Shown here in pieces: positions 21,975 through 29,085 of a stretch of DNA of 30,952 bases; the stretch's first letter is position 1; each line of letters begins with the position of its first letter. The DNA lies in the IMG/VR virus record IMGVR_UViG_3300043464_001218, positions 1 to 30,952 of that record, one strand, 5' to 3'. The stretch is from a virus. Position numbers and translations under genes: made by a program. The notes below the pieces were generated by a model that ran no database searches, was not told the DNA's origin, and saw only the letters and a program-made list of their open reading frames with translations.

Positions 21975-23732
21975 ATGTTTTTACCCCCCGGACTGACCCC
22001 TGAGCAGGCCGAGTATTTCGCATTGCTCGACTCGGACGCCAAGTTCTTCATCCGTCAGTTGTGGCTTGAAATCGGCTCCGAGCGTCCAGACGGCACAGGC
22101 CGCGCCCCGCTCTCCGAACTCGAATACGACTTCGTAGACAACGCCGTTGCCGCCTCCCCCACCACCCGCGTCCTTCTCGGGTGCCGTGGCCTCGGCAAGA
22201 CCTACCTCGTTGCCGCCACGAACGCCGTGTGGCGACTCTTCCGCGACCCGCGCCGCAAGGTCGTCATCGTCTGTAAGAACGAAGCGACCGCGATCAAGAC
22301 TTCCACGCTCATCCGTGGGTGGCTCGACAGCGTGTGGTTCCTCCGGCACATGCGGCCCACGAAGGCCCACCGCGACAACGCCAAGTCCTTCGATGTGGGC
22401 ATGGCCCCGCTAGACCGCCAGCCGTCCATCTCCGTCGTCGGCATCGGCGGCACGCTGGAGAACAACCGCGCCCACACCGTCATCGTGGACGACATTGAGA
22501 CGATCGGCAACACCGTCACGTTCGATGCCCGCGAACGCCTCGCCAACCAGACCGGCGAGTTCATGCACTGGCTCTACCCGTCCGTGGCCTTCGAGGAAGG
22601 CGGCGCACGCGACCCCAACGAGATTCTCTACACCCTCACCCCCAACCACGAAGAGACGATCGTTCACAAGTTGAACGCAGCCGGGCATCCGATCTTCGCC
22701 TACCCCCTCTGCGTCCCCAAGCCCGACGAACAGACGTTCCCCCTCGCCCCCGGCGTGATCGCCTTCATCGAGCAGGGCAAGGCACGCTCGGACGGGTGCC
22801 TGTTCCCCAAACGCTTCACGGAACTTGACGTAGAGGCCCGCCGTCGCCAACGGCTCGAATGGCTCAAGGGTTGCCAGTTGGTCCGGCACCTTGCCGACTC
22901 TGACCGCTACCCCCTCAAGTTGCGGGACTTCATGGTGTTCGACATCGCTGGCGACGAAGCCCCCGTCAGCCTCACATGGGGCACCCGCGACCACAACGGC
23001 TCCACCGCCATCGACGACCTCGAAAGCGGCGGCATCGGCCAGGACCGCTTCTACCGCCCCATCCACGTCACGGCCACGTCCTTCGCCCCCTTCACCGGCA
23101 CGAAGATGTACGTTGACCCGGCAGGCACGGGCACCGACTTGACCGGCTACGCCATCGTCAGCCACCTCAACGGCTTCTATTGGGTCCGCCGCATGGGTGG
23201 CCTCAAGGGTGGCGCGACCCCCGAGAACCTAGCCGCCCTCGCCAGGCTCGCATACGAGACAACCACACAGGAGATTGTGGTTGAGCAGAACTTCGGCGGC
23301 GACGCCTACCGCGCCGCCCTCGAAATCCACGTCAGCCGCCTCCACGTCAAGCCCAACGCCCGCCCCGACAAGCCCAAAGGGTTCGCCGCCAACGTCATCA
23401 GCCGCCCCACCACCGCCACCCGTGGTCACAAAGAACTCCGCATCATCAAGACCATTGAACCGATGTTGAGTAACCACCGACTGATTATCCCCACCGACGT
23501 CGCCGCCAACCCCCTCTTCCAGAAGCAAGTCAGCCGCCTCTCCCACGACCGGGGCTGTCTCGACCACGACGACCTTGTAGACGCATTAGCGGGCTGCCTA
23601 GACGCTTGGGGCTTCACCTTCGCTGACGGCCCCAAAGACCTCAACGACGCCGCAGACCCCCGTATAGCCGCCCACATCGAACGCCTCCGCCGCAAGTACG
23701 GCAAAGCCGTCTCGTGGTTTACCGCCCACTAA
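21975..23732 (+). CDS. Terminase large subunit (T7 gp19-like)
   Basis: A 585-residue packaging motor. The ATPase half has Walker A GCRGLGKTY (69-77) and Walker B HTVIVDD (167-173). The RNase H-like nuclease half shows VDPAGTGTD (380-388), VVEQNFGGD (435-443) and HDDLVDALA (531-539), which supply the metal-binding acids. It would dock on the portal, pump DNA and cut the concatemer. Length equals T7 gp19 (586). Codon use in the second half is strongly C-ending, like the rest of the late genes. The TAA stop is followed at once by direct CCCACTAAC repeats. Confidence 0.96.
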   Translation: MFLPPGLTPEQAEYFALLDSDAKFFIRQLWLEIGSERPDGTGRAPLSELEYDFVDNAVAASPTTRVLLGCRGLGKTYLVAATNAVWRLFRDPRRKVVIVCKNEATAIKTSTLIRGWLDSVWFLRHMRPTKAHRDNAKSFDVGMAPLDRQPSISVVGIGGTLENNRAHTVIVDDIETIGNTVTFDARERLANQTGEFMHWLYPSVAFEEGGARDPNEILYTLTPNHEETIVHKLNAAGHPIFAYPLCVPKPDEQTFPLAPGVIAFIEQGKARSDGCLFPKRFTELDVEARRRQRLEWLKGCQLVRHLADSDRYPLKLRDFMVFDIAGDEAPVSLTWGTRDHNGSTAIDDLESGGIGQDRFYRPIHVTATSFAPFTGTKMYVDPAGTGTDLTGYAIVSHLNGFYWVRRMGGLKGGATPENLAALARLAYETTTQEIVVEQNFGGDAYRAALEIHVSRLHVKPNARPDKPKGFAANVISRPTTATRGHKELRIIKTIEPMLSNHRLIIPTDVAANPLFQKQVSRLSHDRGCLDHDDLVDALAGCLDAWGFTFADGPKDLNDAADPRIAAHIERLRRKYGKAVSWFTAH

Positions 23733-23748
23733 CTTAGCACCCACTAAC
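23725..23748. repeat. Two CCCACTAAC repeats and a TTAG-N6-CTAA dyad at the terminase stop
   Basis: CCCACTAAC occurs at 23725-23733 and 23740-23748, 15 bp apart. Between them TTAG-CACCCA-CTAA (23734-23747) repeats the core and spacing of the dyads at 323-342 and 686-703. Confidence 0.5.
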
Positions 23749-23800
23749 CCAATGTCCCTCAACCCGAACAAAATCGTGTCAAACAACGAAATTGTTGGTA

Positions 23801-23808
23801 GGGGGGGG
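23801..23808 (+). repeat. G8 homopolymer upstream of promoter
   Basis: Eight consecutive Gs just upstream of the promoter at 23811. It is a possible length-variable tract or sequencing-error site. Confidence 0.4.
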
Positions 23809-23810
23809 TC

Positions 23811-23839
23811 TTGTTTCCAGACTTTTGCCCTCGTACAAT
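23811..23839 (+). promoter_or_regulatory. Sigma70-type promoter after the terminase gene
   Basis: TTGTTT (23811-23816), a 17-bp spacer, and TACAAT (23834-23839). It would start transcription near 23846 and drive the small gene at 23870. Host-type rather than phage-polymerase type. Confidence 0.6.
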
Positions 23840-23869
23840 CATGTGTCTATTTATTGCGCTCGTAACGCT

Positions 23870-24058
23870 ATGAACGCTCACGACCAAGCAATCGACCGCG
23901 TTATCCGTTTACGACGCCCACTCGACCCCAAACACCAACAGGCTCGCAACAACGAAGACCGCGACGCCCACCACTACGTACCCGTCGATAAACCCAAGCG
24001 GCTCCCGTGGATGCGCAAGCCGCCGGGGTACTCGATTGTCCTGCCGCCTGAGACGTGA
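23870..24058 (+). CDS. Small basic protein (62 aa), unknown
   Basis: Reads MNAHDQAIDRVIRLRRPLD and continues with charged, His/Asn-rich sequence, ending RKPPGYSIVLPPET. It is the first gene after a sigma70-like promoter (23811-23839) and ends in a GTGA that could couple to an ORF beginning at 24055. No recognisable domain. It lies in the region that in T7-like genomes follows the terminase and carries early accessory genes. Confidence 0.55.
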   Translation: MNAHDQAIDRVIRLRRPLDPKHQQARNNEDRDAHHYVPVDKPKRLPWMRKPPGYSIVLPPET

Positions 24059-24282
24059 TGGGTACCCCCCGAAAAGCGGTGACGAAAAATATGAGGGGAT
24101 GGTTGAGCATCACGCGCGAGTCAGCCCCCCAATGGCCTGGGCGTGCGAGCGGGCACGGACGAGCCTGCAACGCTTCCGGTAAGCATTGGCAACCACTGCG
24201 AATCTTGCGGGTTCGCGTGCGATCGTGCGGCGGGTTGTGCGGAAACGCGACGGCGTGCGAACAGGCGAGGGTGAAAGGGTGA
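24055..24282 (+). CDS. Doubtful ORF (75 aa) in repeat-rich region
   Basis: An open frame from GTG overlapping the previous stop. It reads MMGTPRKAVTKNMRG and is unusually rich in Arg, Trp, Gly and Cys, unlike any neighbour, and third positions are not C-biased. Its DNA carries three of the four GCGTGCGA octamers, so the sequence may be a DNA element rather than a gene. Kept because of the tight junctions on both sides. Confidence 0.25.
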   Translation: MMGTPRKAVTKNMRGWLSITRESAPQWPGRASGHGRACNASGKHWQPLRILRVRVRSCGGLCGNATACEQARVKG

Positions 24283-24441
24283 CGAATGAGCGATGAAAGC
24301 GGCGGGAGGGTGAGGGACTGTGTGAGTGAATCGACCGCTCGCCAGTGTTTTTCTACTCCTGTCCGACCGTCTCCAAACGTGCCCGAAAGCGACACGAAAC
24401 CCTCACGCTGGCAGCGCGTGCGTTCGCGTGCGATGGTGCGG
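24141..24441 (+). repeat. GCGTGCGA octamer cluster and 20-bp direct repeat (iteron-like)
   Basis: GCGTGCGA occurs in the same orientation at 24141, 24215, 24253 and 24426. The second and fourth lie inside a 20-bp direct repeat, GTTCGCGTGCGATCGTGCGG (24211-24230), matched at 19 of 20 bases by 24422-24441. The composition switches here to G-rich third positions. It could be an origin, a packaging site or a regulator-binding cluster. Confidence 0.5.
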
Positions 24442-24636
24442 GATGGGCGCGGGTTGGTGGTGTGGCGCGTGGTCGGTGCGACGCTGGGCGCGGGCTTAGA
24501 TGTGACGCTGGACGCGGATAGGGGCGTGTGGTTCGCGTCGGTTGGTCATGGTGGTGCGATGGTGGGCGCGTGGTCCCCTTGTCCGCTAGAGGCTGTGTCG
24601 CTGGCGTGTAGGCGCGCGCTGGATGTTCGGGTCTAG
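24286..24636 (+). CDS. Hypothetical protein (116 aa)
   Basis: The first ~45 residues are low-complexity and Ser/Arg-rich, but from residue ~50 it looks like a compact domain: MVRDGRGLVVWRVVGATLGA, then LDVTLDADRGVWFASVG and a helix LEAVSLACRRALDV. Alternating hydrophobic strands suggest a small alpha/beta fold. Codons end mostly in G rather than C, unlike structural genes, which may mean recent acquisition or the constraint of the repeats it overlaps. The start may be the internal ATG at 24433. No family recognised. Confidence 0.45.
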   Translation: MSDESGGRVRDCVSESTARQCFSTPVRPSPNVPESDTKPSRWQRVRSRAMVRDGRGLVVWRVVGATLGAGLDVTLDADRGVWFASVGHGGAMVGAWSPCPLEAVSLACRRALDVRV

Positions 24637-24639
24637 GTG

Positions 24640-24658
24640 CCCGAGAACACCCGAGAAC
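24640..24658 (+). repeat. Tandem CCCGAGAAC repeat
   Basis: CCCGAGAAC at 24640-24648 and 24650-24658, about one helical turn apart. The segment from 24637 to 24745 holds no gene I can support; it also has an imperfect GTAGAAAGTGT-type tandem repeat (24714-24742) just upstream of the promoter. Confidence 0.4.
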
Positions 24659-24745
24659 GCGACTCTGTACCCAAACGCGACCGCGCGCAAGTGGTGCTAT
24701 CTCAGTGCGATATGTAGAAAGTGTAGAGAAAGTGTTGAAAAAGCA

Positions 24746-24774
24746 TTGACAATCGACGCGATGTAGCCGATACT
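24746..24774 (+). promoter_or_regulatory. Strong sigma70-type promoter
   Basis: Consensus TTGACA (24746-24751), a 17-bp spacer and GATACT (24769-24774), with A/T-rich repeats upstream that could act as an UP element. Start of transcription near 24781. It would drive the small genes from 24830 and is the best host-type promoter in the window. Confidence 0.8.
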
Positions 24775-24780
24775 CTGTGT

Positions 24781-24829
24781 GTTGGGACAGAATCCCAACC
24801 CCGCTAGAACGGGTACAGGAGTACGAATC
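24781..24829 (+). promoter_or_regulatory. 5' leader with two hairpins, including a CUAGAA loop
   Basis: The transcript would begin with GTTGGG-N7-CCCAAC (24781-24799), then CCCG-CTAGAA-CGGG (24800-24813), then CAGGAG before the ATG at 24830. The CTAGAA-loop hairpin recurs before the next two genes, so it is a shared leader element. Confidence 0.6.
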
Positions 24830-25027
24830 ATGGAACGCAAGGCATTGGAAACCCGTCTTGGTTCTCTCTCGGTTGGCCGCATTGCGATCATCGACGGATG
24901 CGTTGTCTGGCGCATGGCCGACGACCGGTACGTTGTCGGCGAGAACGAAATCAGTCTTGGCATGGCCCCGATGACGATGGAACAGGCCGCCGGATCAATC
25001 GAGTACGTCCGGGCCATTCGCGCCTAA
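24830..25027 (+). CDS. Small protein with shared leader (65 aa), unknown
   Basis: Reads MERKALETRLGSLSVGRIAI then a beta-hairpin-like DGCVVWRMADDRYVVGENE and a C-terminal helix (MEQAAGSIEYVRAIRA). It is probably a small alpha/beta protein. It is driven by the consensus promoter at 24746 and preceded by a hairpin leader and CAGGAG. The stop TAA runs straight into the first GTGACACGGCGCGACAC repeat. Expression before the main early region is likely, as in T7 accessory genes that modify the host. Confidence 0.7.
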   Translation: MERKALETRLGSLSVGRIAIIDGCVVWRMADDRYVVGENEISLGMAPMTMEQAAGSIEYVRAIRA

Positions 25028-25048
25028 GTGACACGGCGCGACACCCTA
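25027..25048 (+). repeat. GTGACACGGCGCGACAC element, copy 1
   Basis: A 17-bp imperfect dyad (25028-25044; GTG-N-C-N-CG-G-CG-N-G-N-CAC) followed by CCTA, starting on the base after the stop codon of the preceding gene. The copy at 25362 is identical over 22 bases. Confidence 0.65.
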
Positions 25049-25066
25049 ACCGCGTGCGCGTCGATT

Positions 25067-25095
25067 CCCGCTAGAACGGGTCAAGGAGTACGAAC
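25067..25095 (+). promoter_or_regulatory. Leader hairpin CCCG-CTAGAA-CGGG and Shine-Dalgarno
   Basis: The second copy of the shared hairpin (25067-25080), followed by AAGGAG (25083-25088) and the ATG at 25096. Nearly identical through the ribosome-binding site to the leader before 24830. Confidence 0.6.
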
Positions 25096-25362
25096 ATGTC
25101 TTCATATCCCGCACTGACACCTGAATACGTTGTCGCCCTTCGCAATTCGGAGCGCAAGTGGACGCTGGAACGTCGCCGATTGCTGGCTCGCCACCGATCG
25201 GACGTAGCGAACCGACTGCGAGTTCTGCGCTCGCGTGGCATCTACGTTCGCACGCTCTGGTCCGGTGGGACTTGGATTGTGTGGGGAACGAAAGAGAACC
25301 GTCGCAACGGCAAGAAGTTGTCGATCATCAACAATCGCATCGACGGCGTTTTCGTCCACTGA
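25096..25362 (+). CDS. Small basic protein with shared leader (88 aa), unknown
   Basis: The N-terminal helix (TPEYVVALRNSERKWTLER) is followed by an Arg-rich helix (RRRLLARHRSDVANRLRVL) and a beta hairpin (IYVRTLWSGGTWIVWGTKE). Strong positive charge suggests nucleic-acid or acidic-partner binding. It shares the leader hairpin with its neighbours, and its stop TGA overlaps the start of the second GTGACACGG repeat. No family recognised. Confidence 0.7.
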   Translation: MSSYPALTPEYVVALRNSERKWTLERRRLLARHRSDVANRLRVLRSRGIYVRTLWSGGTWIVWGTKENRRNGKKLSIINNRIDGVFVH

Positions 25363-25430
25363 GTGACACGGCGCGACACCCTACCGGGTTTCGCTCCGAT
25401 TCGCGCCCGTCATAGTGACACGGCGCAAAC
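25362..25430 (+). repeat. GTGACACGGCGCGACAC element, copies 2 and 3
   Basis: Copy 2 (25363-25379) is complete. Copy 3 (25415-25427) begins GTGACACGGCGC but then diverges. Both are in the same orientation, 52 bp apart, in the intergenic stretch before the gene at 25488. Confidence 0.6.
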
Positions 25431-25435
25431 AAGTG

Positions 25436-25460
25436 CCCCCGCGTGCTAGAACACCGGGGG
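25436..25460 (+). promoter_or_regulatory. Leader hairpin with GCTAGAAC in its loop
   Basis: Arms CCCCCG and CGGGGG enclose a 13-base loop containing GCTAGAAC (25444-25451). It is the third occurrence of this octamer, again within an inverted repeat and upstream of a ribosome-binding site (GGAG). Confidence 0.55.
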
Positions 25461-25487
25461 CGTGGACCGAGCAATGGAGTCTTGCCC

Positions 25488-25979
25488 ATGTCTCTGAATG
25501 ATAAGGCGTCCGCCGCGCTTCGGCGTGAACTGGCGAAGTGTTTCCCTGAGCGCAGCCCCGACGACGCTGGGCATGCGCGGTTGGCCGATGCCCTGACCAA
25601 GCCCGCCCCGCGTCGGTTCTATCTGGTCCCGCTCAATCCGCAGTCGAAGGGCATGACCGACCGCTACGCCGCATACGAGGAAACGCCCGAGGGCTTGCGG
25701 GTTGTCTGGGCCAAGCACAACCCAGCGAAGGCGATCGGCGAGAAAGGCGAACACGTTCCCGCGTTCGGGCAGGTCCACTCGACCCGCCGCGAATACCCCG
25801 CGTTCCACTATGCGTTGAACGGGTGCGGATACTCCAAGCCTCAGCAGATCGGCGAGTACCTCCAAGCCCATGTCGGCAAGGGCGTCGAAATCGAAGTGTT
25901 CGTGTTGGGCGGTTGCCACCCGTCCAGCGCATACCGGACCCGAGACTACACGCCCCGCACGGAAGGGGGTGCCCGTTGA
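25488..25979 (+). CDS. Hypothetical protein (163 aa)
   Basis: Starts MSLNDKASAALRRELAKCF; an N-terminal helix pair is followed by a mixed region with RRFYLVPLNPQSKG, a PAFHYALNGCGYSKPQQIGEYL segment and a C-terminal strand GVEIEVFVLGGCHPS. Soluble and mid-sized, it looks like a single alpha/beta domain. The start is the ATG at 25488 with GGAG twelve bases upstream. It opens a run of three tightly overlapping genes (to 26823) that ends in the AAA+ ATPase, so a replication-linked role is possible. No function assigned. Confidence 0.7.
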   Translation: MSLNDKASAALRRELAKCFPERSPDDAGHARLADALTKPAPRRFYLVPLNPQSKGMTDRYAAYEETPEGLRVVWAKHNPAKAIGEKGEHVPAFGQVHSTRREYPAFHYALNGCGYSKPQQIGEYLQAHVGKGVEIEVFVLGGCHPSSAYRTRDYTPRTEGGAR

Positions 25980-26188
25980 ACCTCTACCACGTCCAGAATC
26001 CCACCAAGCGTCCGGCATACTGGCGCACGCGCCCAAGCCGCACAATCAAAGCGGCATCGGAACGGGAAGCGGCGGTACAAGCGTGCAAGGACATGCCGAG
26101 CGGCGTCTACTTTGTGAACGTCACGGAAGAGACTGGGCGTTCCTACATGTCGGTCGCCGTTGTCCGCCCGATCGGGGGTGGCGCGTGA
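25976..26188 (+). CDS. Small protein starting on TTG (70 aa), unknown
   Basis: TTG at 25976 overlaps the previous stop (TTGA) and has GGGGGTG upstream. The product begins MNLYHVQNPTKRPAYWRTR and holds a helix (ASEREAAVQACKD) and a final strand pair. Its initiation region is nearly the same as that of the following gene: GGGGGTG, then TGAACCTCTA over the start, giving MNLY in both. It ends in a GTGA overlap. No family recognised. Confidence 0.65.
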   Translation: MNLYHVQNPTKRPAYWRTRPSRTIKAASEREAAVQACKDMPSGVYFVNVTEETGRSYMSVAVVRPIGGGA

Positions 26189-26823
26189 ACCTCTATGAAC
26201 AATTCCGCCCGCGCTCCCTGTCCGAGTTTGTTGGCCAACCGAAGGCGCACGAAATCGCGTCCGCGTACATTCGCAAGGGCATGGTGAAGCACAATGCCTT
26301 TTGGATCACGGGTCCAACCGGCACGGGCAAGACTTCACTCGCCCGGATCATGGCCGAGTCTATCGCCGATGATTTCTCTATCGAGGAAGTTGGCGACGGT
26401 TCGGAACTGACTGTCTCGGACATTCAGCGCATGGCCGACAATCTGCGCGTGCCCGGTTGGACGAAAGGGGGGCGCGCCTTGATCGTGAACGAGGCGCACG
26501 GGCTGAAACCGCAAGTCTTCCAACAGTTGCGGGGTTTCCTTGAGACGATGCCTCTGCACGCCGCATGGTTTTTCACCACCACCACCGAGAATCAGGCCGA
26601 GTTGTTTGAGCGCACCACCACCGACCAAGTTCTCAGTCGGTGCGTCAAGATCAGGCTTACGAATCAGGGATTCGCGGCAGGGTTCGCGTCTCGCCTGAGT
26701 GACATAGCGCGACAGATTGGCCTGAGCCTCACCGAGTCCGAGGCTATCAAGATCATGCGGGACACCAAGAACAATGCGCGTGACGCGCTGGAAGAACTCC
26801 AGACGATGTACGCGCTCGCCTGA
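26185..26823 (+). CDS. DnaX/RFC-like AAA+ clamp-loader ATPase, minimal (212 aa)
   Basis: The first residues NLYEQFRPRSLSEFVGQ match the clamp-loader N-terminal motif (RPxxFxEVVGQ). Walker A is GPTGTGKT (43-50), the Walker B region is ALIVNEAH (98-105) with Asn where Asp is usual, sensor 1 is TTTTEN (131-136) and the family SRC motif is at 151-153. It stops shortly after the lid region, so the collar domain used for oligomerisation in DnaX or RFC is missing. It could cooperate with a clamp or with host clamp-loader subunits to load a sliding clamp, or be a chaperone-like ATPase. GTG start in a GTGA overlap. Confidence 0.85.
   Translation: MNLYEQFRPRSLSEFVGQPKAHEIASAYIRKGMVKHNAFWITGPTGTGKTSLARIMAESIADDFSIEEVGDGSELTVSDIQRMADNLRVPGWTKGGRALIVNEAHGLKPQVFQQLRGFLETMPLHAAWFFTTTTENQAELFERTTTDQVLSRCVKIRLTNQGFAAGFASRLSDIARQIGLSLTESEAIKIMRDTKNNARDALEELQTMYALA
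26698..26714 (+). repeat. Degenerate GTGACAC element inside the AAA+ gene
   Basis: GTGACATAGCGCGACA matches the GTGACACGGCGCGACAC element at 14 of 16 positions, same orientation. It lies 187 bp before the integrase start. Confidence 0.4.
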
Positions 26824-26831
26824 AAACAGCA

Positions 26832-26866
26832 CCCTCGCCCGCGCCTAACGGTGCGGCGGGGGTTTC
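26832..26866 (+). terminator. Hairpin terminator before the integrase gene
   Basis: A G/C-rich stem with arms 26832-26845 and 26850-26862 and a TAAC loop, then TTTC. It closes the AAA+ operon, though with a weak T-tract. The integrase ribosome-binding site AAGGAA follows it directly. Confidence 0.55.
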
Positions 26867-26884
26867 AGCAGAAGGAACTACCAA

Positions 26885-27973
26885 GTGACAACCCGCAATC
26901 CCGTCAGGCTCAGGAAAAATGGCGACTACTGGCGCGCCGCGTGGCGAGACTCCACCGGCGTCGAGCGTATCAAGTACCTCGGCAACCGCGCCGAAGTGAC
27001 ACGGCGCGAAGCCCTCGCCATGTGCCAATCGCTCACCGCCGAGCATTTCGCCGCGAAGGGCAACGAGACGGTGGACTCGTGGGCCGAGGACTTTCTGGCC
27101 CAGAACGAGCAACTAGCACCCTCCACCGAGGTCCGTTACCGCACCGCGCTCGGGTGGATCAAACGCTTCTTCAGTGCCGACGCCCTCATTGACCAGATCA
27201 CGCCGAAGCAGTGCGCGGATTATGTCGCCTGGCTCCGGCGTCAGCGGAAAGGGAACAAGCCGGACACGCCGATCCTGGCACCGGCAACCGTGTGGGGCAT
27301 CGTGACGTTTACGAAGATGTGGTTCGCCGAGGCTGAGCGACAGAACCGGCTCGCCAAGAACCCGATGGCGCGGGTCAAGAACGACAAGCCCAACGTCTCA
27401 CGGGCGAAGGCGTATGTGCCCGTGGCCGAGGTCGAGAAAGTGATAGCCGCCGCCCGTAACGACTCATGGCGTGCGTTCCTTGCCCTTGCCCGGTTCGCCG
27501 GACTCCGGGCAATGGAAGCCCTCACGCTGGAGGTGGGGCATGTTGACTGGAAGGCCCGCACAATCAGCGTGTGGCCCCGTGGGGGCGTCGAGACGACCAA
27601 GCAGGCCGCGAGGGTCGTTCCAATGGCCCCGAGGCTCTACGAGGCTCTACGGGCCGCACAGAAGGCCATGCCCGATGGTCAGGTCCGGTTCTGCTGGGAC
27701 GTGCGGGTGGATGGGTACGTCCGCGACACCATCCGCCTTATCGAGCGGGCGGGGTGCTACTGGACGCCGCCCCTGCACGCCCTCCGGTCAAGCCTGGAAA
27801 CCGACTGGATGGGGGAGTACCCCGCGCCCGCCGTGTGCAAGTGGCTGGGCCATGACATCAAGATCGCCATGAATCACTACGTCAATCACGAGCGGTTCAT
27901 GGTGCTAGTGACAGCCCGCGAGAAGGAACCCGCGCCGCCGGAAGATTCTCGCACAATATCCGCACAAAAATAG
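26885..27973 (+). CDS. int: Tyrosine integrase (phage site-specific recombinase)
   Basis: A 362-residue enzyme with an N-terminal arm-binding part (about 1-60), a core-binding SAM-like domain (about 62-155) and a catalytic domain with R208 (FAGLR), K239 (TTKQAAR), H298-x-x-R301 (HALRSS), H323 (LGHD) and nucleophile Y332 (MNHY). It would recombine attP with a host tRNA-Thr gene. The start is GTG with AAGGAA ten bases upstream. The stop codon touches the putative attP core, the usual arrangement. A copy of the GTGACACGGCGCGA repeat lies within the coding sequence at 26996. Confidence 0.95.
   Translation: MTTRNPVRLRKNGDYWRAAWRDSTGVERIKYLGNRAEVTRREALAMCQSLTAEHFAAKGNETVDSWAEDFLAQNEQLAPSTEVRYRTALGWIKRFFSADALIDQITPKQCADYVAWLRRQRKGNKPDTPILAPATVWGIVTFTKMWFAEAERQNRLAKNPMARVKNDKPNVSRAKAYVPVAEVEKVIAAARNDSWRAFLALARFAGLRAMEALTLEVGHVDWKARTISVWPRGGVETTKQAARVVPMAPRLYEALRAAQKAMPDGQVRFCWDVRVDGYVRDTIRLIERAGCYWTPPLHALRSSLETDWMGEYPAPAVCKWLGHDIKIAMNHYVNHERFMVLVTAREKEPAPPEDSRTISAQK
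26995..27015 (+). repeat. GTGACACGGCGCGA element inside the integrase gene
   Basis: GTGACACGGCGCGA (26996-27009) is identical to the first 14 bases of the intergenic element copies at 25028 and 25363, and the following AGCCCT resembles their CACCCT. The same orientation as all other copies. Confidence 0.45.
27950..27967 (+). other. Left arm-type CGCACAA pair next to attP
   Basis: CGCACAA at 27950-27956 and 27961-27967, both in the same orientation and 11 bp apart, in the last codons of the integrase gene. They are matched by a second pair on the other side of the core (28123-28141), as expected for arm-type integrase sites of attP. Confidence 0.6.
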
Positions 27974-28373: not shown

Positions 28374-29027
28374 TCACGACCGAAACGGCGTGCGCCTCTG
28401 GACGACCACGGCGAACTGTTCGACGTGTTCCCGAGAGACTACCACGCTCGGATACGCAGGGTTGTCCTTCTCAAGCAGGTAAGTACCGTCACGCTGGGGA
28501 TTCCACCGGCACAGCATCCCGCCCGGCGTTCGGCTGTCTGCACCCATGCGGATGTAGACAACGGTGCGCGGGGGCGGCATCCTGTCGGCATCTTGAGGAA
28601 CGGGCTTACAGATGACTAAATCACGATCAAGAAGCGTCGGAGCCATTGAAGACCCGTCAACCACGAGGGCGAACAGGTCGCTGTCTTCCGTCTGAATGTC
28701 CCTGTCAACGTAGGTGTACCCCTCCGTCGAGTTGACGCCCCACTCTGTCGCGTCGATGAACTGGCCCGCCGCCGTGCGGTTGATGACCGCGATCTTGCCG
28801 TCGCTCGTGCCGAGGATCAGCCGCCGCAACTTCTCCGGCGGCACCTGCAAAATCTCTGCAAATCGTGGCACTTCCGAGAGTTTGACTTTCGTAACGCCCT
28901 TCTCACGCTGGGCAATTGCTTGATACGAGAGGCCAAACAACTCAGCCACGTCCTGCAACGAGAGTTGCAGCGTCTCACGTCGCTCGCGAATGAATCGCGC
29001 GACGGGTGGCAGTGGCTTTGACGGCAT
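28374..29027 (-). CDS. CI-like repressor: XRE helix-turn-helix plus S24 peptidase-like domain
   Basis: Residues 9-64 form an XRE-type DNA-binding domain (LQDVAELFGLSYQAIAQREKG contains the recognition helix). Residues 110-217 form a LexA/CI-type domain with Ser127 in VVDGSSMAPT and the closing NPAYPSV. An Ala-Gly (87-88), the usual self-cleavage site, lies in the linker. The catalytic Lys expected in the VKRL/FKKL position is replaced: LCRW has Cys173 there. The repressor may thus not cleave itself. It would bind the operators to its right and hold lysogeny. Alternative start GTG at 29045 would make it leaderless from a promoter at 29057. Confidence 0.9.
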   Translation of the reverse strand: MPSKPLPPVARFIRERRETLQLSLQDVAELFGLSYQAIAQREKGVTKVKLSEVPRFAEILQVPPEKLRRLILGTSDGKIAVINRTAAGQFIDATEWGVNSTEGYTYVDRDIQTEDSDLFALVVDGSSMAPTLLDRDLVICKPVPQDADRMPPPRTVVYIRMGADSRTPGGMLCRWNPQRDGTYLLEKDNPAYPSVVVSREHVEQFAVVVQRRTPFRS

Positions 29028-29042
29028 GTCGCAGGCTAGGAA

Positions 29043-29085
29043 CACAAAATAAAGTTATCCAACAACCCGAGAAAATACAAGGGTT
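29043..29085 (-). promoter_or_regulatory. Candidate leftward repressor promoter
   Basis: On the minus strand TTGTAT, 17 bp, TAACTT (its -10 covers 29057-29052) followed six bases later by GTG at 29045. A start at this GTG would give a leaderless message; the ATG at 29027 is the other option. Confidence 0.45.

What the first reader, a model, noticed from the sequence alone, without database searches (positions are those of the whole stretch)
24781..25460. Shared leader hairpin with a CUAGAA loop before three small genes
CCCG-CTAGAA-CGGG precedes the genes at 24830 and 25096, with near-identical bases through the ribosome-binding site. GCTAGAAC lies in a hairpin loop before 25488 too. Arms differ between copies while the octamer is kept, which is the mark of a functional RNA loop, perhaps a site for a phage or host RNA-binding protein or a processing enzyme.
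Basis: partly seen in the sequence, partly recalled or inferred. Interest (0 to 1): 0.65.

Follow-up and report, generated by a model that had tools for sequence, protein, structure and literature searches.

The report
Phage leader hairpins with matching loops
In a little-known group of temperate phages, several unrelated small genes in a row each start with a short RNA hairpin whose loop is mostly the same within one phage but differs between phage lineages, which suggests that each phage uses a shared RNA tag to control this gene set, although nothing here proves it.

Summary
CCCG-CTAGAA-CGGG lies at 24800 and 25067, and the octamer at 25445 (4 in the window against 0.4 expected). The true unit is larger: a second hairpin lies 0, 3 or 8 nt upstream. 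In all five lineages found, the first leader's upstream hairpin starts 6 nt after a -10-like hexamer, so it probably forms the 5' end of the transcript. Relatives fetched through the terminase show stems kept by some compensatory changes, with leaders placed before different small genes. The octamer itself is not universal: three lineages carry CUAG-type loops, one carries CCGCAA in three leaders, one carries CUGCA in two. The loop thus tends to be shared within a genome and to change between lineages, as reading by a phage-specific trans factor would predict; duplication and chance are not excluded. A short hairpin before a ribosome-binding site is ordinary here (32 of 82 starts, against 29% of shuffles). 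Marine phage leaders of Rfam freshwater-2 share the hairpin-hairpin-RBS plan and a UAGAAC loop, but no homology could be shown. Verdict: a real structured leader, a new variant of known phage start-associated or translational-operator elements; the mechanism is inferred.

The parts
24746..24774 (+). sigma-70-like promoter, TTGACA-17-GATACT
   Evidence: Only promoter-like hit in 23700-27000, 10 of 12 matches; 0.6 expected, so weak alone. A -10-like hexamer ending 6 nt before the upstream hairpin is present in 5 of 5 lineages.
24781..24799 (+). upstream hairpin of copy 1, GUUGGGA-CAGAA-UCCCAAC; probable 5' end of the transcript
   Evidence: MFE; 2 of 7 pairs with a change on both sides among 4 lineages, 92.9% of cells paired.
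24800..24813 (+). tag hairpin of copy 1, CCCG-CUAGAA-CGGG, directly abutting the upstream hairpin
   Evidence: arms invariant in the 4 lineages of A3.
24817..24821 (+). Shine-Dalgarno AGGAG for the gene at 24830
   Evidence: sequence
24830..25027 (+). small gene 1, 65 aa, no Pfam or PHROG match
25034..25063 (+). upstream hairpin of copy 2, CGGCGCG-A-CAC...GUG-CGCGUCG
   Evidence: MFE; L058 has GUCGCGC/GCGCGAC at this place.
25067..25080 (+). tag hairpin of copy 2, CCCG-CUAGAA-CGGG
   Evidence: found by model R1 built without it, E 1.1e-9.
25084..25088 (+). Shine-Dalgarno AGGAG for the gene at 25096
   Evidence: sequence
25096..25362 (+). small gene 2, 88 aa, no Pfam or PHROG match
25403..25426 (+). 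upstream hairpin of copy 3, GCGCC.GUCA-UAG-UGAC..GGCGC
   Evidence: MFE of the leader; nearly the same letters in L201.
25435..25461 (+). tag hairpin of copy 3, GCCCCCG-C-GUG-CUAGAA-CAC-CGGGGGC
   Evidence: outer stem kept in L201 (one C-G to U-A change on both sides), L215 and L217.
25475..25479 (+). Shine-Dalgarno-like TGGAG for the gene at 25488, 13 nt after the hairpin (3 nt in copies 1 and 2)
   Evidence: sequence
25488..25979 (+). gene 3, 163 aa; first 35 residues conserved, the rest unrelated by eye between relatives

Best explanation
A repeated, structured 5' leader marks the genes of an accessory operon in a temperate phage with a T7-like terminase. Shown by sequence: a promoter-like site places the transcript start at a 7-bp hairpin; directly or shortly after it comes a short hairpin with a shared loop; then Shine-Dalgarno and start. 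Copies 2 and 3 lie between the genes. Inferred: the first hairpin protects the 5' end of the mRNA, and the second is a tag whose loop is read by a trans-acting factor, most likely a phage RNA-binding protein, which sets translation or stability of all tagged genes together. The loop changes between lineages along with its reader, as known for the T4/RB69/RB49 gene 43 operator loops.
For: Five lineages hold the first leader's upstream hairpin with a -10-like hexamer exactly 6 nt before it. That hairpin has two pairs with changes on both sides among 4 lineages. At the copy-3 place, stem cells stay paired while the loop changes: CUAGAA, CUAGAA, CGCAA, CUGCAAA. In L201 the copy-2 arms read UUCCG/CGGAA. 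Loop k-mers shared by all leaders of one genome: window CTAGAA (1 of 1000 shuffle sets share any loop 6-mer), L215 CCGCAA (2 of 1000), L201 GCTAG as a 5-mer (8 of 1000). The genes behind the first and second leaders differ between lineages. 12 of 14 folded leaders show the tag hairpin in MFE or centroid. Model R1 finds W2, L058b, L215a and L201b, none of which it was built from.
Against: No reader protein was found, and none was tested. Short hairpins before Shine-Dalgarnos are common here. The CCCG/CGGG arms never vary at the copy-1 place. L215's first leader has no tag hairpin, and its third (UUCG/CGAA) is not in the MFE. In L217 and L058 the shared loop k-mer is within or near chance (84 and 40 of 1000 for 6-mers), and a third L217 leader, before the clamp loader, has loop CCGGAAA. 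Only five lineages; W1 and W2 may be a recent duplication. W2, L215 first, L215b and L217a do not fold better than shuffles (z 0.02, -0.49, 0.08, 0.37).
Confidence: 0.42

Rival explanations
1. Generic insulating or stabilising hairpins: the stems keep the RBS free of upstream structure and slow decay; the loop is not read by anything and is shared by descent or chance.
For: Hairpins before Shine-Dalgarnos are frequent in these genomes (32 of 82). The upstream hairpin at the predicted 5' end fits known stabilising 5' stem-loops (review PMC7509114, passages). Stems are conserved better than loops at the copy-3 place.
Against: It does not explain why leaders with different arms share a loop in the window, L201 and L215. 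[quoted passage not shown]
Confidence: 0.3
2. Cassette boundary: duplicated leader DNA serves as recombination homology for swapping accessory genes, and loops match within a genome through gene conversion or duplication.
For: Genes behind the leaders are swapped; a 237-nt stretch of leader plus the first codons of gene 3 is 86% identical to L217 where TerL is 67%; W1 and W2 share 26 of 28 nt; a 12-mer recurs 17 times in 4 of 5 genomes.
Against: Conversion would copy arms as well as loops, yet arms differ in W3, L201b, L201c and L215a-c; compensatory stem changes point to RNA pairing.
Confidence: 0.15
3. The dyads are DNA operators for the phage S24-type repressor (28374-29045, minus) or another DNA-binding protein.
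For: The 7-5-7 dyad lies at the predicted start site and its halves are GC-rich inverted repeats.
Against: No enrichment of the dyad elsewhere in the window: 10 sites with up to 2 mismatches against 9.9 expected, one exact. Copies 2 and 3 have other dyads, no promoter was found for them, and the asymmetric loop is the shared part.
Confidence: 0.08
4. The element is a diverged member of the freshwater-2 RNA family (RF02980), here found in marine-type T4-like phage leaders.
For: 6 of 7 tested loci pass the freshwater-2 gathering score; in that model the last two hairpins abut, the last loop holds UAGAAC, and an RBS follows.
Against: The Rfam model gives no hit in the window or in L201, L215, L217 and L058. 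Model R1 scores freshwater-2 leaders at 14.7 bits or less, below loci outside that set at up to 19 bits. Loops in L215 and L217 differ.
Confidence: 0.07

Closest known systems
Freshwater-2 RNA (Rfam RF02980, cis-regulatory)
   Same: Two abutting hairpins directly before the Shine-Dalgarno, last loop with UAGAAC, found in phage leaders.
   Different: One extra hairpin; the loci seen here stand before one gene family (MGRP...) of T4-like phages; the Rfam model does not hit the window or its relatives. Its original description (Weinberg et al. 2017) is recalled, not read.
SAS and ESAS of cluster K mycobacteriophages
   Same: A short conserved sequence holding the RBS before many unrelated non-structural genes of one phage group, about half with an inverted repeat upstream; the repeat consensus differs between subclusters (PMC3203893, passages).
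   Different: SAS is a linear 13-mer, typically 3-7 bp from the start; its authors found little support for RNA pairing in ESAS and favoured DNA binding. Here stems show some compensatory changes.
T4/RB69/RB49 gene 43 translational operator
   Same: Hairpin upstream of the RBS with a loop read by a phage protein; loop letters differ between related phages (UAAC in T4 and RB69, UAAA in RB49) (PMC3014915, passages).
   Different: A single autoregulated gene with a known reader; here several unrelated genes share the loop and no reader is known.
Stabilising 5' stem-loops (ompA type)
   Same: Hairpin at or near the mRNA 5' end (PMC7509114, passages; the ompA case itself recalled).
   Different: Stability was not measured; these do not need a conserved loop (recalled).

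Membership tests
freshwater-2 RNA (RF02980) | Score above the curated cut-off of the covariance model (49.9 bits) | tested here: not met
   No hit in the window nor in L201, L215, L217, L058.
freshwater-2 RNA (RF02980) | Two abutting hairpins then RBS, with UAGAAC in the last loop | tested here: met
   Met by window copy 1 and by L058a; L201a has CUAGUAA and L217a CUGCAC instead.
freshwater-2 RNA (RF02980) | First of three hairpins present | tested here: not met
   The predicted start site is at the first base of the second hairpin; prediction only.
SAS/ESAS | 13-mer GGGATAGGAGCCC near starts | tested here: not met
   Leader letters differ by eye (against the consensus).
Phage translational operator | Hairpin near the RBS | tested here: met
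Phage translational operator | Binding of a protein that changes translation | not testable with these tools
   needs experiment
5' stabilising stem-loop | Stem at or within a few nt of the 5' end | tested here: inconclusive
   The 5' end is predicted from the -10-like hexamer only.

The most novel reading that the evidence does not exclude
Each phage lineage carries a private loop 'password' (CUAGAA, CCGCAA, CUGCA) on the leaders of its accessory operon, read by its own co-evolved RNA factor or by loop-loop pairing (CUAG and UGCA are self-complementary, CCGCAA is not), so that newly acquired genes come under control simply by landing behind a tagged leader.
Probability: 0.15. Interest if true: 0.72.

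Novelty: new variant of a known kind. Interest (0 to 1): 0.42.

Why it matters
If the loop is read in trans, this is a plug-in control code for a phage accessory operon: genes are exchanged while the RNA tag stays, and the tag letters change between lineages. It would give a small, testable RNA-protein or RNA-RNA pair, and a handle on how temperate phages regulate newly acquired genes. It also offers a structural parallel for freshwater-2, on which I found no paper in the searched library.

Tried and rejected
Homology to freshwater-2: attractive by anatomy, but not shown. Model R1 ranks loci outside the freshwater-2 set (L171, L139, L113) above the freshwater-2 leaders among loci picked for the same octamer and RBS spacing, and the Rfam model is silent on the window.

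The 71 viral stretches with the exact 14-mer are not evidence by themselves: contexts show that apart from the near-identical contig and L058 they are either the T4-like leader or places of other kinds. The 8-N pattern scan was set with a wrong spacing, so its 5 hits do not bear on the window.

Host: not found. Gene 3 and terminase scans of genome contigs gave no relative, and no tRNA was found in five loci. Searches for relatives of genes 1 and 2 returned only the near-identical contig. A scan with the gene 3 N-terminus returned four contigs already known.

Rows dropped: of the 10 terminase loci, L213 is near-identical to the window; L214 and L216 repeat L201 and L058; L218, L219 and L220 end close to the terminase match and were not inspected further (L218 and L220 were in the CTAG-loop scan, L219 was not); L221 and L222 are 39-residue matches in 28% G+C contigs and were left out. 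The clamp-loader leader of L217 was aligned but not folded.

Kissing of loops: CUAG and UGCA are self-complementary, CCGCAA is not, so it cannot be the general rule. RNase III sites as in T7 early mRNA (recalled): stems of 4-10 bp look too short; not tested. Literature: searches for freshwater-2 and related terms, T7 early hairpins, translational operators and intergenic hairpins listed no paper on this element; only titles and abstract starts were seen there, and the library is partial.

Full report
What is there. The window is a 30,952-base virus record, G+C 0.63. Around the finding lie a T7-like terminase large subunit (21975-23732), an integrase (26885-27973), an S24-type repressor (28374-29045, minus) and a clamp-loader-like ATPase within 25870-26823. 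Three genes with no Pfam or PHROG match start at 24830, 25096 and 25488. CCCGCTAGAACGGG lies before the first two and GCTAGAAC in a stronger hairpin before the third. The octamer occurs 4 times in the window against 0.40 expected.

The full unit. In copy 1 a hairpin GUUGGGA-CAGAA-UCCCAAC (24781-24799) directly abuts the CUAGAA hairpin; copy 2 has a longer imperfect hairpin 3 nt upstream, and copy 3 one 8 nt upstream. The only promoter-like site in 23700-27000 is at 24746-24774, so transcription should start at about the first base of the upstream hairpin. One such site is about what shuffles give (0.6), but a -10-like hexamer ending 6 nt before the upstream hairpin is present in 5 of 5 lineages (read by eye).

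Relatives not chosen by the motif. A terminase alignment (A1) returned 10 loci in viral contigs. Four lineages besides the window reach the leader region: L201 (TerL 99% identical protein), L215 (66%), L058/L216 (52%) and L217 (50%); contig 3300035126_000526 is 99.98% identical to the window over 18,978 nt and was not counted apart. L201 keeps three leaders: CCCG-CUAGUAA-CGGG, UUCCG-CUAGAAA-CGGAA, and GCUG-CUAGAA-CAGC inside a GCCUCCG/CGGAGGC stem; the genes behind the first two differ from the window's. L058 holds two leaders with CCCG-CUAGAA-CGGG; its contig ends soon after. L215 holds four leaders: the first has only the upstream hairpin, the other three carry CCGCAA with arms CCCU(C), UUCG and GUG(C). 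L217 holds CCCG-CUGCAC-CGGG and GUG-CUGCAAA-CAC, plus a leader before the clamp loader with loop CCGGAAA.

Pairing. On the four copy-1 leaders (A3) 95.5% of cells pair; two of seven upstream-hairpin pairs change on both sides; sliding the partner by one base drops pairing to 50-51%. Control (a) is reached by 6 of 500 shuffles for cells paired and for covariation score, but by 186 of 500 for pairs changed on both sides, so the covariation is suggestive only. At the copy-3 place the seven outer pairs hold in 4 of 4 lineages, with one C-G to U-A change on both sides in L201, while the loop changes (read by eye). Of 14 leaders folded, 12 show the tag hairpin in MFE or centroid; the misses are L215's first leader, which lacks it, and L215b. 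Folding energy is better than shuffles with z below -1.9 in 7 of 14 and less remarkable in the other 7.

Is the hairpin special? Not by itself: 32 of 82 starts with a Shine-Dalgarno and at least 60 codons have a G+C hairpin within 12 nt, against 473 of 1640 shuffled upstream stretches (28.8%). The unusual part is the loop. With arms of at least 3 bp, a 6-mer shared by hairpin loops of all leaders of one genome arises in 1 of 1000 shuffle sets for the window and 2 of 1000 for L215; L201 shares a 5-mer (8 of 1000), L217 a 6-mer (84 of 1000) and L058 6-mers (40 of 1000). L215's first leader, which has no tag hairpin, and L217's clamp-loader leader were left out of that test. With the stricter 4-bp arms the window shows no shared loop k-mer because copy 3's inner stem has 3 bp, nor does L217. 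A label shuffle of loop type over genomes gives p of about 4e-4 (loop types assigned by me), which overstates the case because W and L201 are close kin and W1 and W2 are near-duplicates.

Model search. Covariance model R1, built from the four copy-1 leaders, finds W2 (E 1.1e-9), L058b (2.7e-7), L215a (2.8e-4) and L201b (4.3e-3) among 29 sources, with two loci outside this family following at E 0.005-0.006; over five whole records its hits of at least 16 bits all lie in this operon.

Freshwater-2. The exact 14-mer scan and an arm-free pattern both picked out T4-like phage leaders before a gene starting MGRP, downstream of a gp23-like gene (identity recalled; ORFs). Six of seven such loci tested pass Rfam freshwater-2 (L117 does not). 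The plan is alike: hairpin, abutting hairpin with a UAGAAC loop, then AGGAG. But neither model finds the other family beyond background. I treat it as a structural parallel.

Best reading. A 5'-terminal hairpin plus a tag hairpin before the RBS, repeated before each gene of an exchangeable operon. Stems vary with some compensation; the loop tends to be uniform within a genome and differs between lineages. The simplest functional reading is a loop read in trans, as in the gene 43 operators of T4, RB69 and RB49, whose loops also differ (PMC3014915, passages). The main rival is a generic stabilising or insulating hairpin whose loop is inherited. The first fits the loop pattern better; the second fits the high background of hairpins. 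No reader is known and I have no expression data.

Noticed in passing
window 25028-25039, 25363-25374, 25415-25426, 26996-27007 (+): GTGACACGGCGC recurs 17 times in 4 of 5 related genomes, always in the operon's orientation (0 copies of the reversed control), often right after stop codons, once inside the integrase gene; resembles one-way binding sites such as stoperators (recalled).
   Followed up: partly
window 25488-25979; L201:13546, L215:11922, L217:13097: Gene 3 has a nearly fixed 35-residue N-terminus (91-97% identical) followed by a C-terminus that looks unrelated in each lineage: a shared head with exchanged tails.
   Followed up: partly
L059:12906-12978; also L031, L108, L099, L154, L195: Freshwater-2 RNA lies between a gp23-like gene and an MGRP gene in T4-like phages; that gene of L059 has no tblastn match in the phages collection.
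   Followed up: partly
L217:14115-14145: A hairpin leader also precedes the clamp-loader gene, with loop CCGGAAA.
   Followed up: no
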